From Spirochaetales bacterium (GTDB lineage: Bacteria > Spirochaetota > Spirochaetia > SZUA-6 > DRHE01), in the NCBI GenBank assembly GCA_030615505.1, contig JAUWZD010000005.1, positions 28,222 to 92,221 on the forward strand: a stretch of DNA of 64,000 bases. The letters are read 5' to 3'. Below, in pieces: positions 5,549 through 36,095 of the stretch. Under the pieces are notes generated by a model. That model was not told the origin of the DNA. It was given only the letters and a program-made list of their open reading frames with translations, and made no database searches. Within the stretch, counting starts at the first letter, position 1, and the number at the start of each line of letters is the position of its first letter. The position numbers and the translations under genes were made by a program.

Positions 5549-5779
5549 ATGGGTAAGATCGCAAAGGTAACTTCCAAGGGACAGGTTACCATCCCAAAAG
5601 AAATACGGGACCATCTCAATTCCCAAGTAATAGAGTTTGAGATTGAAGATGATAAGGTTGTTGTACGACCTGTAAAGAGGGTAGCAGGAAATTTAAAAAG
5701 ATATGCAAACCCTGATTTCATTCCTCGGGAAAAAACTGCCTGGGAAAAAGCAGTGAAAGACAAGTATGAAAATCGTTGA
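5549..5779 (+). CDS. AbrB/MazE/SpoVT-fold antitoxin (VapB-like)
   Basis: MGKIAKVTSKGQVTIPKEIRDHLN swapped-hairpin AbrB motif; overlaps the PIN gene by 14 nt. Confidence 0.85.
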   Translation: MGKIAKVTSKGQVTIPKEIRDHLNSQVIEFEIEDDKVVVRPVKRVAGNLKRYANPDFIPREKTAWEKAVKDKYENR

Positions 5780-6137
5780 TGCTAATGTCGTTCTTCGCTA
5801 TCTCCTCGCCGATGTTCAACATCTTTTTATGAAATCTAAAGAACTATTAGAGCATGAAACAATATATCTTCCCTTTGAAGTGCTCGCTGAAATTGTTTAC
5901 GTGCTTGAAAAGGTTTATACAGTAACCAGAGAAGAGATATCTGGATCACTTATCAACTTATTAAAATATCAAAATATGTCAACATATGACTCAGAGATAG
6001 CTATATATGCCATGAAAGCTTTTTCCGATACGAAGCTAGATTTCATTGATACGCTCCTATCTGCCTATAAAAAGGTGCGGAATTTTGAAATTGTCAGTTA
6101 TGATAAGAAACTGATCAAATATATTGAGATGAATTGA
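5766..6137 (+). CDS. PIN-domain ribonuclease toxin (VapC-like)
   Basis: MKIVDANVVLRYLLAD... with later acidic residues (LDFIDTLLSA); paired with AbrB-type antitoxin. Confidence 0.83.
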   Translation: MKIVDANVVLRYLLADVQHLFMKSKELLEHETIYLPFEVLAEIVYVLEKVYTVTREEISGSLINLLKYQNMSTYDSEIAIYAMKAFSDTKLDFIDTLLSAYKKVRNFEIVSYDKKLIKYIEMN

Positions 6138-7183: not shown

Positions 7184-7249
7184 CTATTTATCAATTTAAC
7201 TATTTAGGGGGTTAAGGGGGATTTAGCCCGTGTGGGGTCGGGTAATCGG

Positions 7250-7265
7250 GGGGCGTTGCCGCCCC
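7250..7265. other. GGGGCG-TTGC-CGCCCC hairpin 65-80 nt downstream of the DUF1566 stop
   Basis: 6-bp perfect G/C stem with 4-nt loop, read directly. Confidence 0.6.
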
Positions 7266-7309
7266 AGCGGACAATCGGTTTTGAATGTCTTTTAGCGTGA
7301 TCCGGTTAA

Positions 7310-7455
7310 TATGCCTTTAACAAATCGCATGAACCTATCCGGCAGGGTAGCCGGAGAAATAGAGAGAAGACGTTCGTTACGGGAGAAATACAATATCGGG
7401 CTGTTTCTCTTGAAGCTTCCCACCTCCTCAACCCCTCCGTTCCGTGTCGCCGTCT
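7310..7455 (-). repeat. Dispersed repeat R2, copy 2 (inverted)
   Basis: Reverse complement reads gggaaagagaagacggcgacacggaacggagg...atattgtatttctcccgtaacga...gccggataggtt, matching R2 at 9395-9640. Confidence 0.8.
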
Positions 7456-7829
7456 TCTCTTTCCCTGAACCATACACAAATGACCGGTTTCTAGATAATG
7501 TGCTTGCCATGGAAAACCTCCTGGTAAATGACAGCCAAGACCACTCCAACATTAGTTACAAGTTCGTAGATCGGGGTTGCTTTCTATTGAAACAAGCGAT
7601 TCAGCTAGAAAACGCCAATGTATTTGCCCGTTCACTTCGTAAGATCTACTCCACTCGTTCCGAAATTGTACACTCTAAAAAACGGCCCAGAGACTGGGAT
7701 ACCGATAAATCAAAGAAGCTCCTTCAAGATTCTGATCACTACCTGAGGGAACTATTGCGATACGTACTTGAACATCCGGAATTTGCTGATTCCATAAAAG
7801 TGGACAAAGCTAAGAGGGATTTATACTAA
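7311..7829 (+). CDS. HEPN/Apea-like domain protein; N-terminal part repeat-derived
   Basis: C-terminal ..FVDRGCFLLKQAIQLENANVFARSLRKIYSTRSEIVHSKKRPRD.. resembles HEPN (RxxxxH-type, RSEIVH); first ~50 codons lie in an inverted copy of repeat R2. Confidence 0.5.
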   Translation: MPLTNRMNLSGRVAGEIERRRSLREKYNIGLFLLKLPTSSTPPFRVAVFSFPEPYTNDRFLDNVLAMENLLVNDSQDHSNISYKFVDRGCFLLKQAIQLENANVFARSLRKIYSTRSEIVHSKKRPRDWDTDKSKKLLQDSDHYLRELLRYVLEHPEFADSIKVDKAKRDLY

Positions 7830-8510: not shown

Positions 8511-8855
8511 GTGAATAAGGAGGGCCAAAATGTGAAATACGAAGGTACGTGGCACATTTCTGAGATGGAAATGTGGGATGAGGATTACTTCAACATGGAG
8601 GTTCAAGCGTACGTCAGGATCGATTCCGAGGGGCTCGGCGAATTCCAATTTGGTTTGGTTTCCGGAGAAATAGACGGAGAGATTGTAGAAGACGGTACCG
8701 ACGAGAGATTCGAGTTCACTTGGGAAGGCAATGATGAATGTGATCCAGCTTTGGGCAGTGGCTGGTTCAGATTGAAAGACAAGAATAGTATTGAGGGAAG
8801 AATAAAGACCCACATGGGAGACAGCTCGGCATTCTCAGCGAGACGTGCGAAATAA
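8511..8855 (+). CDS. Hypothetical protein
   Basis: 114-aa ORF YEGTWHISEMEMWDEDYFNMEVQAYVRI...FQFGLVSGEIDG; resembles a widespread small uncharacterised family. Confidence 0.6.
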   Translation: MNKEGQNVKYEGTWHISEMEMWDEDYFNMEVQAYVRIDSEGLGEFQFGLVSGEIDGEIVEDGTDERFEFTWEGNDECDPALGSGWFRLKDKNSIEGRIKTHMGDSSAFSARRAK

Positions 8856-8961
8856 TCGTGACCCGGCTTGATTCGAGAAATGTCAGCGACAATTACGTGA
8901 TCAACTATGAAGCTGTTAAAAATCGCTTTTCCGCCAATGTCCGCAACATTCGGCAACTTTC

Positions 8962-9265
8962 GCCGGAAGCGCACAAAAATTGGATCAAGATGGTCTGCTT
9001 TTCAATTTATTGAAAGGATAGAATTATTCACACTAAAACCATTGAGAACACGCCAATATTTCTTCAATTATAATCCGGTGTATTCAAGGATCATGCCGGA
9101 AAAACCATTGAAACCGGTTTGTCCGCCTTGCTTCGAGCCTGCCGTCCTGGCAGGCTTGTCTTGGTTTGTAGAGCGATGGAAAAATAGCTTCCAAAAAACA
9201 GGGACGTTTTTTGGAGCGTCGGGGAGCCGCAATATCAGGAAGCAAATAATGTTATATGCTCAGCT
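8962..9265 (+). repeat. Dispersed structured repeat R1, copy 1
   Basis: Shares 'catgccg(g/a)aaaaaccatt', 'gtccgccttgcttcg', 'agcgtcgggGAGCCGCAATATCAGGAAGCAAATAA' with 9685-9955 and (reverse complement) 28445-28835. Confidence 0.85.
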
Positions 9266-9394
9266 AATCCACCATCAGAAAAAACGGATCGGATCACTCA
9301 ATCTCTTACCTGTATATCATCCGCAGTGATTCTCTTCCTTTGATTCCCCCGGCCCTCTCCTTACCGGTTAACTAAAGCTGGAAGCTATGAGGTA

Positions 9395-9640
9395 TTTTCT
9401 AGTCTATCCGAAATACCAAACGGCAGCCGTATGGAAAGGCGGTTGACGGAAGAAAGAGGGGGGGGAATTAGGAAAGAAAGATAAGACGGCGATACGGAAC
9501 GAGGGATTGAGGATGCGGAAAGTTTCAAGAAAAACGGACCGATATTGTATTTCTCCCGTAACGATTATCTTATCTTGGTTTCCGGCTCCCTTGCCGGATA
9601 GTTTTATCTGATTTATTAAAGGCGCATTCTTATCTACAAT
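9395..9640 (+). repeat. Dispersed repeat R2, copy 1
   Basis: 'ggcagccg-atggaaaggcggttgacggaagaaagagggggggg' shared with 35590-35735; 'gccggatag-tt..gatttattaaaggc' matches reverse complement of 7310-7455. Confidence 0.8.
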
Positions 9641-9684
9641 TCTCACGTTTTTAAGCCAACCCAACTCTTTAGGAGCATTGCAAT

Positions 9685-9955
9685 ATTTCTTCGGATAGAA
9701 CCAGGCATAGTAACCGGATCAATCTAAAAAAGATCATTTAAAACAGATAGTCCGCCTTGCTTCGTGCCCGCCGTCGTGGCGGGCTTGGCTTTCTTTTTTA
9801 AGGGGTTGGAAAAATAGCTTCCAAAAAAACACGGATGTTTTTTTGGAGCGTCGGGGAGCCGCAATATCAGGAAGCAAATAACATTTTCCCTAACGCCTCC
9901 CCCGCCATCTTGATAAAGACAGAAAGAAAATGGGTTGTTTTCCATTGCTCCGGCT
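9685..9955 (+). repeat. Dispersed structured repeat R1, copy 2
   Basis: Same order of two hairpins and core as R1 copy 1. Confidence 0.8.
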
Positions 9956-9997
9956 TCCTCGAAACTGATATTCTAAAGGCGGAATTAAAGATCCAAA

Positions 9998-11030
9998 ATG
10001 TTTGGATTAATCCTATGGCTCATAAAAATAATTTTGTTACCCCTCTCATCAACCAAAAAGGAGCTTATGGCAAGGGTACTGTTAGTGGAAAAAGAAAATA
10101 CCATTCTTAAACGTTCTTTAGAATTAAAACGGAAGAGGCTCAGATTCAATTTTGGGGATAGATTGTTTTATTCGGTCTTTAGCAGAATAGCATATAGAGC
10201 AAGATATCACTTCACTCTGGTAAAACCTGAAACAGTGCTGAAATGGATCAGGAGGTTTATCAAGGGGTACTGGAGTTTTGCCCAGAGGAACAATAGGAGA
10301 GGGAGGCCTGAGACGCCTTATGAAATAAAGCAGTTGGTATTGAAGATGAAGAATGAGAATATCTGTTGGGGGAATGGGAAGATACAGGGGGAGTTAGAGA
10401 AGTTAGGGATCAAGCTGGATAAAAGGACAATTGCTGGGATCATAGAAGATTTCAGGAGGAAAGGCAGAATTAGAAAGGGATTAACATGGTCGAAGTTTAT
10501 ACAGAGTCATTTATCAAGCCTTTATGGAATGGATTTTTTTACACTTGATACGATATTGGAAAACTCTTTTACATCTTCTTCATCATACACTTACAGACCC
10601 GCCAAATTGTCCGGTATGCTGTTACCACCAAACCGACAAGACAGTTTGTAAGGCAGCAATTAATAGAGTTTACATGGGATTTTAACGGCAAACGGATCTA
10701 TTTGGTGCATGACGGCTCCGGTGAGTTCCATTATCTCAATTATGATGATTTCGGTATAGAGGGGATCAAAATATCAGCGAATGCTCCCAACATGAATGCG
10801 TTCTTAAGCATGGTTTATCGGCTCTGCAAGAAGGGAAGCCTTTGACTGGTTTATTATCTTCAATGAAACTTAAGAATCAGGAGTATCCTGGCCGAATATA
10901 TCGGATACTATAATGAGAAACGTCCACATCAGGGAATTGCTCAAAAAGTACCAAAAGGATATACCCCGCAAAAACGAGGAAATATTATCACTTACCCAAT
11001 ACTGTCTGGGCTGCACCACCATTACTAAAG
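9998..11030 (+). pseudogene. Integrase-core (DDE) transposase, frameshifted remnant
   Basis: LVKPETVLKWIRRFIKGYW...RRGRPETPYEIKQLVLKMKNENICWGNGKIQGEL... then other frame RIYLVHDGSGEFHYL...ISANAPNMNAFL...YYNEKRPHQGIAQK; resembles the intact copy at 29430-30503. Confidence 0.75.
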
Positions 11031-11221
11031 ATTGTTTTCGCTTAAGCTCTCCATATTCGATCCTCCCCTATTTTTTCATTTCAATAGCCAAACCGAGCTA
11101 TAATCGCTCGGTTCAGTGATAGCTTAAGAATCCCTTTAGAAAATATGATGTGACCCCCGCACCTGCAAAATCGTGGATTAGCCTTACCCTTAAGGAAAGG
11201 CGTAGACACGCCACATACAAG

Positions 11222-12020
11222 AGTACAGTACGTTGGACTGGATGTCCACAAGAAATCGATCTAGGTATCGGTATTAAATGGTAAGAATGCTGCTCCTGAG
11301 ATAGAAAAAGCACTACCGAATCAGGAGACAAGGATCAAAGTTTTTTTGAAAAGCTAAAAATGCGAGGGTCAGTGATAGCCTGCTATGAAGCAGGGTGCAT
11401 TGGTTTCGAGTTGCAGAGGATACTCGAGAGCATAGAGGTTCCCTGTATAATAGCAGCACCTGGGTTATTACCCCGACGGCCGGGAGAGCGTGTAAAAACA
11501 GACAGGCGCGATGAGCGGAAGTTGGCTCGGAATCTTCGGAATGGCGAAGTTACGCCGATCCATATACCTACGAGGGAGGATGAGGCTGTCAGGGATTATT
11601 TGAGGATGCAAGGAGATTTCAAGGTGGAGAGAAAGAAGACCAAGCAAAGACTGCTGCATAATCTTATCTACGACAGCACTGTCGATGGTTGTAGAGGTCG
11701 GAGACTTCAGGCGGTTTACGAAGGCTGAGGAGTTTATGTCGTTTCTGGGGTTGGTACCTTCGGAGAATTCAAGTGGGGATAAACGAAGACAGAGAGGGAT
11801 AACAAAAGCAGGCAACTCCCACCTGCGCAGACTCCTTGTGGAGGCTGGCTGGCATTACCGATTCAACAGGGGAGTTGGCAAGCGCCTGATGGCGAGGAGA
11901 AAAGGACAGCTTGTTTGTGTTATGTCGTATGCGAACAAGGCAGGCAAACGGCTAAGCAAGAAGTTCAACAGGCTCACATATTCAGGAATAAGAAATCTCA
12001 GGTTGCTGTGACGGCTGTGG
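11222..12020 (+). pseudogene. IS110-family transposase, degenerate with internal deletion
   Basis: YVGLDVHKKSI* ... VIACYEAGCIGFELQRIL..KTDRRDERKLARNLR (DEDD domain) then in another frame VVEVGDFRRFTKAEEFMSFLGLVPSENSSGDKRRQRGITKAGNSHLRRLLVEAGWHYR (Transposase_20); middle missing. Confidence 0.8.
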
Positions 12021-12844
12021 CGAGAGAATTAGCAGGGTTTATCTGAGGCCTGATGGTTGGTCAAACAGCATAGGCGTTTGAGTTATGTTGGTTGAGCAAA
12101 TGGAAGAACTATTCAGGAATTAAGGAGAAAAAAAAAGTCCACTTCGAGTAGAGAGATGGGTAGAGAAATATCAGCGATACAGGAGAATCCTCGACTAAAT
12201 CTTAAGGCAGCTATGTGGCGACTTGCTGACTGGCTGATCCTTGCTATCCAGACAGAGGCAGCTCCGACGATCCAATTGGCCTGCAGGGCTTCCCTTACCA
12301 AAAGGGAAGTAATCCGCGAATATCAGACTGGTCTATCGCCGTGAATGGGTTTCTCTATCCTTCCCTCTCTTCCCGAGGTTTCAAGGAGGAAAGATTTTAA
12401 ATATCTATTTTTACAGTTGACAAAGGTAACATCATATCAGATTTATGACAATTCCATTATCGGATGTAATTTTTCACCCACACGGGGTAAAATTGGCAAA
12501 TTCGATGTATTGGGGCTGAAAACCGGCCTCAGGGGATCATTTTTGTGTGTACTTTATCAATGTACTGATACAAGGAAATGATTACAAAATTGGTGTATTC
12601 CTTTTAGATGGAATCGGTCTTCGACCCCTTAAGTAACCTTTTTCCTGTTAAAGAATTAGCTAATACATAGCCCAACATGCACCTCAATCGTTGTTGGGAA
12701 ATGACACTTCTATGTGGCACAAGTTGGCCTTGAAATCGGCCTGGAAATGTCTGTCAATACTTTGCTTTTCGCCATAAGATTCGATTTCTAAGGAGAATCA
12801 GGTCGGATTTACCAGATTCCCTCTGTTTTCCTTGATTTTTTGTC

Positions 12845-28219: not shown

Positions 28220-28444
28220 ACCTTCGGCGATGTGTGGACGGACATCGGACGACCCTCCGGCTCCGGCGAGACAGCGCTATTGGAACAACTTGAGGATATT
28301 TCCGACCAGATATGCAGAATGAACCTCAGAAAGATAAGGATTTCAAGCTATTAATCCTGGCAAGTCTGAATATTTCCATAAATCATACGAGATTCTTAAG
28401 CTATCACGGCGTTGAACGAATATAATTAGCCTTAGCTCTTGGAA

Positions 28445-28835
28445 AAAAAGAAAGGGGATTGGAGAAAAACAACCAATTTCCCTTGCTGTCTTTTTCAAGA
28501 TGGGGGGGAATTAGCTGAGAATATAACATTATTTGCTTCCTGGTATTGCGGCTTCCCGACGCTCCAAAAAACATCCCTGTTTTTTGGTAGCTATTTTGCA
28601 GCACCTTAAAACAGAAATAATAGCCCGCCAGGACGGCAGGCTCGAAGCAAGGCGGACAATCCGTTTTGAATGGTTTTTTCGGCATGATCTTTGAATACGC
28701 CGGATTATATCTTAAGACTTATTGGAGCGTTCTCAATGGTGGTAGTGTGAATAATTCCACCCTTTCAATAACGCAAACAGCAGACCATCTTAATCAAATT
28801 ATTGTGGGTTTCCGGCGCAAAGTCGCATAATGTTG
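28445..28835 (-). repeat. Dispersed structured repeat R1, copy 3 (inverted)
   Basis: Reverse complement matches R1 copy 1 (8962-9265) across 'aagatggtctgc...ttgaaagg.tggaattattcacact...ccattgagaac..' through 'caggaagcaaataatgttat', and copy 2 further on. Confidence 0.85.
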
Positions 28836-28852
28836 TGTTCGCCGATATCCAA

Positions 28853-29278
28853 TTTCGCCGGAAGCGCAGCTTCTGAGGACACTAACTCATGGCAAAAAAG
28901 AAGAAGATTCCTGAGAAATACCAAAGATGGATCGATGCCCGGAAGAGATACCATCTTTCTCACGCTCATATCCAGATGGCCAGGGAATTAGGTATGAATC
29001 CCAGGAAGTTTGGCAGTCTCGCCAACACCAACCAAGAGCCCTGGAAATTGCCACTGGCCGATTTTATTGAGGAGCTCTATTTCAAACATTTCAAGAAAAA
29101 TCAGCCCGATAATGTGCGATCAATTGAGCAGATGGTGAGCGACTATAACAAGAAAAAAGAAGTGCGCAGAGACCAGAGACTAAAGGAAAAAGAATCACAT
29201 CAATCCGGTAAAGACGTAATTCAGCAATAGAAACGTATCTGATCAATCAATTTCTAACGAATATCTTCTCTTGATCCC
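28853..29278 (+). repeat. Repeat R3 (113-aa ORF unit), copy 1
   Basis: Near-identical to 34903-35328 from 'ttctgaggacactaactcatgg' to 'tttctaacgaatat.ttctcttg'. Confidence 0.85.
28889..29230 (+). CDS. Small basic hypothetical protein (113 aa), duplicated at 34939
   Basis: MAKKKKIPEKYQRWIDARKRYHLSHAHIQMARELGMNPRKFGSLANTNQEPWKLPLADFIEELYFKHF... Confidence 0.75.
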   Translation: MAKKKKIPEKYQRWIDARKRYHLSHAHIQMARELGMNPRKFGSLANTNQEPWKLPLADFIEELYFKHFKKNQPDNVRSIEQMVSDYNKKKEVRRDQRLKEKESHQSGKDVIQQ

Positions 29279-34814: not shown

Positions 34815-34920
34815 GGTAGAAGTGCACAATGGCGAATTTTTTAAGGGTCAAAAATGTGCACTTCGGCGAAATTGGATATCGGCGAACACAACATTCGGCG
34901 ACTTTTGCCAGAAATGCCGT
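34815..34920 (+). repeat. Repeat R4, copy 1
   Basis: gaagtgcacaatggcgaattttt..ggg.tca.aaat.tgcacttcggc(g/a)aaattg.atatcggcgaac shared with 35987-36095. Confidence 0.8.
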
Positions 34921-35328
34921 TTCTGAGGACACTAACTCATGGTAAAAAAAGAAAAAGATACCTGAGAAATATCAAAGATGGATCGATGCCCGGAAGAGAT
35001 ACCATCTTTCTCGCGCTCATATTCAAATGGCCAGGGAATTAGGTATGAATCCCAAGAAGTTTGGCAGCCTTGCCAACACCAAACAGGAGCCCTGGAAATT
35101 GCCATTGCCCGATTTTATTGAGGAGCTCTATTTCAAACAATTAAAAAAAAAACAGCCCGATAATGTGCGATCAATTGAGCAGATGGTCAGCGACTATAAC
35201 AAGAAAAAAGAAGAGCGCAGAGACCGGAGACTAAAGGAAAAATAATCACAACAATCGGGTGAAGACGTAATCCAACTGTAGAAACACATCTGAACAATCG
35301 ATTTCTAACGAATATTTTCTCTTGGCCC
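34903..35328 (+). repeat. Repeat R3, copy 2
   Basis: Matches 28853-29278. Confidence 0.85.
34939..35245 (+). pseudogene. Frameshifted paralogue of the 113-aa protein
   Basis: ATGGTAAAAAAAGAAAAAGATACCTGA: one extra A in the A-tract versus ATGGCAAAAAAGAAGAAG at 28889; remainder in frame from 35027. Confidence 0.8.
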
Positions 35329-35341
35329 CCCCCCTCTGAGC

Positions 35342-35432
35342 GCCCCAAAGACCTGGCGTCCCTGCCAGGTCTTTGGGGCTTATTGTAGCGATTGGCCTTC
35401 CTCGGGCTACAGGACGTAGCCCGAGGAAGGCC
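35342..35432. other. Two tandem perfect hairpins (16-bp and 17-bp stems)
   Basis: GCCCCAAAGACCTGGC-gtccct-GCCAGGTCTTTGGGGC (35342-35379) and GGCCTTCCTCGGGCTAC-aggac-GTAGCCCGAGGAAGGCC (35394-35432). Confidence 0.9.
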
Positions 35433-35589
35433 ACAAGAATAGTTTTTACTGTAGCAGAAAAAGGTGACAGTATTCCTGTCTCGTCACGTATTGTCGTTAT
35501 TTATTCGGATCCCAGTTTACATTCACTCCGAACTCATTGTTGAAGCGGAGAGGGATTGTGTTCTACTCCCCCAGGGGGAGAACGTAAGC

Positions 35590-35735
35590 TTGAGGCGGTT
35601 AGAGTTTTCAAGTTTAGCCGAAATACGAGGCGGCAGCCGGATGGAAAGGCGGTTGACGGAAGAAAGAGGGGGGGGTGAAGAGGGAAAGAGAAGACAGCGA
35701 CACGGAACGGAGGAGTTGAGGAGGTGGAAAAACTC
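35590..35735 (+). repeat. Dispersed repeat R2, copy 3 (partial)
   Basis: ggcggcagccggatggaaaggcggttgacggaagaaagaggggggggtgaagagggaaagagaagacagcgacacggaacgg. Confidence 0.8.
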
Positions 35736-35986
35736 TAGAAAAACCTTAAACAAGGTGAGCGGTTTGACAATGTGGTCGGCGCTCCTGATAGCAGGATCTC
35801 TGTTCTTTACGAACAAGTTCTGACGCCCCGGGGCAATATATTAGACCCTTCCCGGTACTTGAACTAGGTCATAACCGCTCACCCAACTTTATATTTTACT
35901 ACAGTGAGAGCAGGGATACCAGTCTAGTTTTTATGAATTTGTAGCTGGTTTATCTGTATGGTAAAATCCGTAAAGGGCGCACTATG

Positions 35987-36095
35987 CGAATTTTGTTATT
36001 TGCTGGAAGTGCACAATGGCGAATTTTTCAGGGCTCAGAAATTCGCACTTCGGCAAAATTGCATATCGGCGAACGGCCCATTCGCAGACATCCGG
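35987..36095 (+). repeat. Repeat R4, copy 2
   Basis: See R4 copy 1. Confidence 0.8.

What the first reader, a model, noticed from the sequence alone, without database searches (positions are those of the whole stretch)
8962..9955. R1: dispersed intergenic repeat with two hairpins showing compensatory changes
Three copies (8962-9265, 9685-9955, inverted 28445-28835) keep the same layout: 'gtccgccttgcttcg' - hairpin A - spacer - hairpin B - 'agcgtcgggGAGCCGCAATAYCAGGAAGCAAATAA'. Hairpin A: GCCTGCC/GGCAGGC (9137-9155), GCCCGCC/GGCGGGC (9766-9784), GCCTGCC/GGCGGGC (28623-28641 rc, G-U wobble). Hairpin B: CCAAAAAAC/GTTTTTTGG (9191-9214), lengthened on both arms to CCAAAAAAAC/GTTTTTTTGG (9821-9846), CCAAAAAAC/GTTTTTTGG (28564-28587 rc). 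A third stem changes in concert (AATGG/CCATT at about 9930 vs ATTGG/CCAAT in copy 3). Paired covariation argues for selection on structure: ncRNA, attachment site or non-autonomous mobile element.
Basis: seen in the sequence. Interest (0 to 1): 0.66.

Follow-up and report, generated by a model that had tools for sequence, protein, structure and literature searches.

The report
Lineage-restricted hairpin repeat from transposon debris
The repeat is real and one of its hairpins has been kept by paired mutations, but it is a module of scrambled, mostly dead mobile DNA (a small-gene unit fused to a broken transposon) known from only a few marine bacteria, and its structure most likely acts as a transcription stop rather than as a new kind of RNA.

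Summary
Observation confirmed in the main. R1 occurs three times in the window and six times in the genome, with 15 or more further copies in three other MAGs. On 21 copies, hairpin A shows real covariation: four pairs change on both sides, and the chief pair has both states in each of two well-separated subfamilies. Hairpin B and a newly found closing stem (TTGCTTC/GAAGCAA) are conserved but give no covariation; hairpin B grows on one arm only in two copies. The 'third stem' is wrong: it is a scrap of transposase coding sequence that pairs in only two copies.

R1 is a ~240-bp module. Its left neighbours vary. Its right neighbour is either R2, which derives from the 3' end of a small 'MAKKKK' gene unit, or the inside (about nt 362) of a 1.4-kb IS3/IS481-like insertion sequence whose right terminal repeat often survives downstream. 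So R1 belongs to scrambled, IS-linked arrays, mostly decayed. It is absent from Rfam, plasmids, phages, viral contigs and 295 other genomes of the phylum, but present in a Planctomycetota-labelled vent MAG. Hairpin A on the + strand and hairpin B on the - strand both look like intrinsic terminators. Best reading: terminator-like 3' module of a mobile unit, a MITE-like relic. Interest is modest.

The parts
9055..9274 (+). R1 copy 1 (subfamily alpha), internal copy, followed by R2
9128..9245 (+). structured core of copy 1: closing stem TTGCTTC 9128-9134 / GAAGCAA 9239-9245; hairpin A 9137-9155; hairpin B 9191-9214
9681..9923 (+). R1 copy 2 (subfamily beta), terminal copy, followed by IS remnant; hairpin A 9766-9784, hairpin B 9821-9846, closing stem 9757-9763 / 9871-9877
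28485..28723 (-). R1 copy 3 (subfamily beta), solo copy followed by IS remnant; hairpin A 28623-28641, hairpin B 28564-28587
8928..9054 (+). left neighbour X of copy 1 (short palindromic CGCAACATTCGGCGACTTTCGCCGG site plus a stretch shared with copy 3); not part of copy 2
28724..28868 (-). same left neighbour X before copy 3
9275..9680 (+). R2, derived from the 3' region of the MAKKKK gene unit, lying between the two R1 copies
9969..11141 (+). remnant of an IS3/IS481-like IS (transposase pseudogene 9998-11090, broken by stops and frameshifts)
12452..12487 (+). surviving right terminal inverted repeat of that IS (IS nt 1398-1433 equivalent)
11150..12440 (+). IS110-type element relic lying inside the IS right part, separating it from its terminal repeat
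28281..28484 (-). IS remnant (3' part only) after copy 3
28889..29230 (+). MAKKKK small gene (113 aa) whose units carry R2 and R1 downstream in other copies; here divergent from copy 3
7217..7463 (-). truncated copy: R2 plus the left part of R1, broken at the hairpin A position and joined to another palindrome
34819..36095 (+). related array without R1: palindromic site, MAKKKK gene copy, R2 fragment, palindromic site

Best explanation
R1 is the 3'-terminal, terminator-like module (about 240 bp) of a small mobile unit. The unit consists of a short palindromic site, the MAKKKK gene, its 3' region R2, and R1. The unit was amplified in tandem and became fused, at R1's right edge, to the inside of an IS3/IS481-like insertion sequence. 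R1 copies were then spread and reshuffled as part of these IS-linked segments, and most copies are now relics with internal deletions, that is, MITE-like debris. Shown: repeat family, hairpin A covariation, module edges, IS fusion with surviving right terminal repeats, R2 equals the MAKKKK 3' region, and restriction to a few genomes. Inferred: that hairpin A was kept because it stops transcription. It is a G+C-rich stem followed by a T-rich tract on the + strand, while hairpin B is the equivalent on the - strand, so the module would insulate the unit on both sides. Also inferred: that spread occurred by IS transposition in trans plus homologous recombination.
For: Family and structure: 21-copy alignment; hairpin A has 4 supported pairs with double changes (C-G/U-A 10:10 plus one U-G intermediate; G-C/A-U 16:5; C-G/U-A 17:4). 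For the whole structure 0 of 500 shuffles reach the observed covariation score, and sliding the partners abolishes pairing. Both states of the chief pair occur in both subfamilies, which are separated by a 100/99 branch, so there were at least two independent double changes. Mobile context: 12 of 13 terminal R1 copies with downstream sequence available (all but C120) run within 50-160 bp into same-strand IS sequence, and none has IS sequence upstream (L067 by inspection). Intact IS copies (L068 1433 bp, L070 1475 bp) have 44-bp terminal inverted repeats; the right repeat survives downstream of seven R1 copies (scores 23-45, against a null maximum of 15.9). R2 aligns with the MAKKKK 3' region. 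MAKKKK-R2-R1 order in L019, L061, L062, L063, L065, and MAKKKK-R1 in L064. w3 is X-R1-IS where w1/w2, g2a/b and p21a/b are X-R1-R2-R1-IS. Terminator reading: hairpin A (+) and hairpin B (-) are both called terminator-like in all three window copies, with 5 and 4 sites in all against 1.7 and 1.2 expected (strands given relative to R1); hairpin A is followed by 4-7 T in 9 bases in all 21 copies.
Against: No full element with two good ends and a target-site duplication was found; only one candidate left terminal repeat (L061:1383, score 21). The T tract is weak in subfamily alpha (TTGTCYTGG), and hairpin B's tail on the - strand starts several bases after the stem. The closing stem, which a terminator does not need, is also conserved. 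No transcription data exist.
Confidence: 0.5

Rival explanations
1. R1 is a DNA recombination or transposition site: the folded single strand (closing stem plus two hairpins) is recognised by a recombinase or transposase, as folded attC or IS200/IS605 ends are.
For: Both strands fold into closing stem plus two hairpins in predictions and paired changes favour neither strand. Junctions recur at R1 edges and inside hairpin A (g2d, g5, L062:8123, window 7217-7463). An integron integrase is encoded in the genome and tyrosine recombinase pairs lie on R1-bearing contigs of G061.
Against: No R1 copy has the attC R''/R' boxes (that motif test also failed on the integron region used as control, so it is weak). 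Breaks within hairpin A fall at different bases, as expected of palindrome fragility. No recombinase is consistently next to R1.
Confidence: 0.2
2. R1 is a structured non-coding RNA (or an RNA leader) with its own function.
For: Four-helix consensus with covariation in hairpin A and in a 3-bp mini-stem; conserved single-stranded 3' stretch GAGCCGCAATATCAG.
Against: No Rfam relation. Folding energy only modestly below shuffles (z -1.7 and -2.6). One-sided changes are wobble-compatible about equally on both strands. The mini-stem depends on aligning two different spacers. No promoter-like site at a consistent place.
Confidence: 0.15
3. R1 is purely dead DNA: hairpin A's paired changes were made in an ancestral active element or by gene conversion, and nothing is selected now.
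For: Low copy number, mosaic decay, and a broken transposase next to copy 2 in the window.
Against: Hairpin A's inner six pairs (columns 29-34 with 40-45) are standard in every one of 21 copies although three of them vary, while nearby sequence and the transposase decay.
Confidence: 0.15

Closest known systems
MITEs and other non-autonomous IS derivatives (e.g. ERIC/IRU, RU-2; REPINs, PMC3116915; enterobacterial RU elements, PMC2759123)
   Same: Small, non-coding, dispersed, palindromic, linked to transposase remnants, unevenly spread among relatives.
   Different: R1 has no terminal inverted repeats of its own and no seen target duplication; it is a module inside larger mosaic units, with very few copies (6 per genome).
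IS3/IS481-like insertion sequence with 44-bp terminal repeats (intact copies at L068:6649-8081 and L070:4051-5525)
   Same: Its 3' part and right end follow nearly all terminal R1 copies.
   Different: R1 is absent from the intact IS copies; it is joined to IS nt ~362, not an IS end.
Intrinsic (rho-independent) transcription terminators
   Same: Hairpin A: G+C-rich stem, 5-base loop, T-rich tract; hairpin B the same on the other strand.
   Different: Imperfect T tracts; both hairpins are enclosed in a conserved closing stem, inside a repeat.
Integron gene cassettes and attC
   Same: Arrays of small genes separated by palindromic sites; an integron integrase in the genome; 3'-of-gene position.
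   Different: R1 lacks the attC R''/R' boxes and goes with one gene unit only; the shared site between diverse genes is another short palindrome (34819-34902 type).

Membership tests
MITE / non-autonomous IS derivative | terminal inverted repeats matching a full-length transposon | tested here: inconclusive
   Right repeat present downstream of 7 R1 copies; only one weak left-repeat candidate, L061:1383
MITE / non-autonomous IS derivative | target-site duplication | tested here: not met
   No duplication visible at the ends of the one candidate element, L061; intact IS L068 and L070 also show no clear one
MITE / non-autonomous IS derivative | multiple dispersed copies with no intact coding for mobility | tested here: met
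   6 copies in genome, transposase remnants broken
Any Rfam RNA family | covariance-model score at or above gathering | tested here: not met
   No hit in window; nothing meaningful at E<=5
Intrinsic terminator | G+C-rich hairpin followed directly by a U tract | tested here: met
   Hairpin A in all three window copies; tract 4-7 T of 9 in 21 copies; weak in subfamily alpha
Intrinsic terminator | stops transcription in cells | not testable with these tools
   needs RNA-seq or reporter assay
Integron attC site | R'' (RYYYAAC) and R' (GTTRRRY) boxes bounding an imperfect palindrome | tested here: not met
   0 of 21 copies on either strand; the strict motif also missed the integron region used as control, so this test is weak
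IS end | R1 lies at the end of intact IS copies | tested here: not met
   Intact IS copies L068 and L070 bear their own ends and no R1

The most novel reading that the evidence does not exclude
R1 is the recombination (or RNA guide) element of a so far undescribed cassette-like system, in which units with a small MAKKKK gene are gained, lost and tandemly repeated at a folded, covarying DNA hairpin, and which has crossed between Spirochaetota and Planctomycetota in vent habitats.
Probability: 0.08. Interest if true: 0.65.

Novelty: new member of a known kind. Interest (0 to 1): 0.3.

Why it matters
It explains a conspicuous repeat with true compensatory changes as part of IS-linked cassette debris, and it gives a worked caution: of the three 'covarying' stems seen by eye, one is genuine, one is merely conserved, and one is transposase coding sequence. 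If the cross-phylum copies are real, the arrays are a marker of gene exchange between vent Spirochaetota and Planctomycetota.

Tried and rejected
Coding sequence: the frame 'CPPCFEPAVLAGLSWF..' is open in only 7 of 21 copies and shifts within subfamily beta; rejected. Third stem AATGG/CCATT: rejected. Rfam at permissive E: nothing credible. Phage, plasmid or viral carriage of R1: no hit (one search used a mistyped pattern and was replaced). IS110 bridge RNA: the IS110 relic was seen only beside window copy 2, so it cannot explain the family. Group II intron target: one truncated copy (L062:8123) is joined to a reverse-transcriptase fragment, but inside the hairpin stem and in one copy only. 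Empty-site comparison: relatives keep the left flanking genes (ROK, GFO/IDH) but their contigs end near by, so it was inconclusive.

Full report
Observation. The three copies exist as described in their central part. The 3' motif and the 5' motif are each found at exactly three places, and direct comparison gives 84% identity over 316 bp between copies 1 and 3 and weaker, gapped similarity to copy 2. The window is contig C12:28222-92221 of a 4.44-Mb, 171-contig MAG. Its relatives HyVt-362 and CSMAG_1186 are labelled Spirochaetales.

Distribution. The genome holds six copies. Two of six same-family genomes hold copies: G002 three plus one truncated, G005 one truncated. A hairpin A pattern scan of 84,980 species genomes found only those two and one Planctomycetota-labelled MAG, MohnsGC08_bin181, which holds 14 matches. 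A covariance model found R1 in none of 295 other genomes of the phylum. Plasmid, phage and viral collections gave nothing. The RpoB of the MohnsGC08 genome is 42-45% identical to those of the Spirochaetota, which among themselves are 66-96%, so the bin is not a spirochaete. One of its R1-bearing contigs carries a gene missing from six of the seven genomes of the family and only 32% identical in the other, but its integrase contig is 85-88% identical to spirochaete contigs. Transfer and mis-binning therefore both remain possible.

Structure. On 21 copies the consensus fold has a closing stem TGCTTC/GAAGCA, hairpin A and hairpin B. Hairpin A has double changes at four supported pairs; the C-G and U-A states of the chief pair are 10:10 with one U-G intermediate, which is window copy 3. 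Subfamilies alpha and beta are separated by strong support, and both contain both states, so the double change happened at least twice; the rest of the tree is poorly resolved. Hairpin B is nearly invariant, and two copies lengthen one arm only. The closing stem varies by a few one-sided changes only. Within these helices, leaving out the outermost pairs of the closing stem and of hairpin A, four one-sided departures are G-U on the + strand and three on the - strand, so the constraint is not tied to one strand. A protein-coding explanation fails. The stretch named as a third stem aligns with the transposase gene from about IS nt 362 and by inspection pairs only in window copies 2 and 3.

Anatomy of the surroundings. 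Comparison of all copies places the module edges at about -66 and +172 from GTCCGCC. To the right lies either R2 or IS sequence from nt ~362. R2 aligns with the 3' region of the MAKKKK gene. The order site-MAKKKK-R2-R1 recurs in L061, L062 and L065, and MAKKKK-R2-R1 or MAKKKK-R1 in L019, L063 and L064. In the window, G002 and two MohnsGC08 contigs the order is R1-R2-R1-IS; window copy 3 is the solo form R1-IS. The IS is an IS3/IS481-like DDE element: L068 and L070 hold uninterrupted copies of 1433 and 1475 bp with 44-bp terminal inverted repeats. Its right repeat survives downstream of seven R1 copies. In the window the IS right part is further split by an IS110-type relic. Several R1 copies are broken inside hairpin A at different bases, as expected for a palindrome that provokes deletions; this is an inference.

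Function. Hairpin A on the + strand and hairpin B on the - strand score as terminator-like in each window copy, above shuffled expectation, and hairpin A keeps 4-7 T in the next nine bases in every copy. A terminator or insulator at the end of a small mobile gene unit is the simplest function that predicts compensatory change in a G+C stem and persistence through reshuffling. It is an inference: the T tracts are imperfect and no expression data exist. The rival that the folded DNA is a recombination site cannot be excluded, and the lack of strand preference in the one-sided changes (few in number) suits that rival as well.

Verdict. A real, structurally constrained but low-copy repeat, of the known kind 'non-autonomous, IS-linked interspersed repeat', not seen before in this form as far as the searched collections show. 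It is moderately interesting for its two-phylum distribution and cassette-like arrays, and not a new class of element on present evidence.

Noticed in passing
window 34819-34902, 36006-36089, 28822-28868(-), 8928-8975; L059:4866, L061:217 and 1481, L062:7218, L065:4870: A short palindromic site (core CGCAACATTCGGCGACTTTCGCCGG) recurs between different small genes (MAKKKK, DUF72, ACT-domain, others), like a cassette junction; it is not a canonical attC and one copy is inverted at its centre.
   Followed up: partly
G000:C77:355-1290 (L079) and C77:26683-27622; G061:C23:929-1870: Integron integrases (TIGR02249 above cut-off) in a Spirochaetota family apparently outside Treponema; the held paper PMC3607928 (2013) states that Treponema was the only spirochaete clade then known with integrons.
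   Followed up: partly
L059:184-2041, L062:490-2345, L065, L017:12802-13710: A conserved element with two tandem Xer-like tyrosine recombinases, an HTH gene and two unknown small genes lies directly upstream of R2-R1 in several loci; in L062 a 738-aa gene with no Pfam match is added.
   Followed up: partly
window 28889-29230 and 34945-35245; 8532-8855: Small proteins MAKKKKIPEKYQRWIDARKRYHLSHAHIQMARELGMNP.. and ..YEGTWHISEMEMWDEDYFNME.. have no Pfam or NCBIfam match; the first has unannotated or hypothetical relatives on three plasmids.
   Followed up: partly
L067:3017-4185: An IS1595-like element (two adjacent ORFs, family judged by eye) sits inside R1 with an 8-bp duplication TAATGTTA.
   Followed up: no
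window 5549-6137: MazE/AbrB-type antitoxin and PIN-domain toxin pair in the same small-gene array.
   Followed up: no
G005:C136:562-1433 (L023): R1 hairpin A joined directly to the middle of the IS transposase at a shared GGGCCTGAG-like stretch, suggesting a deletion through short homology.
   Followed up: partly
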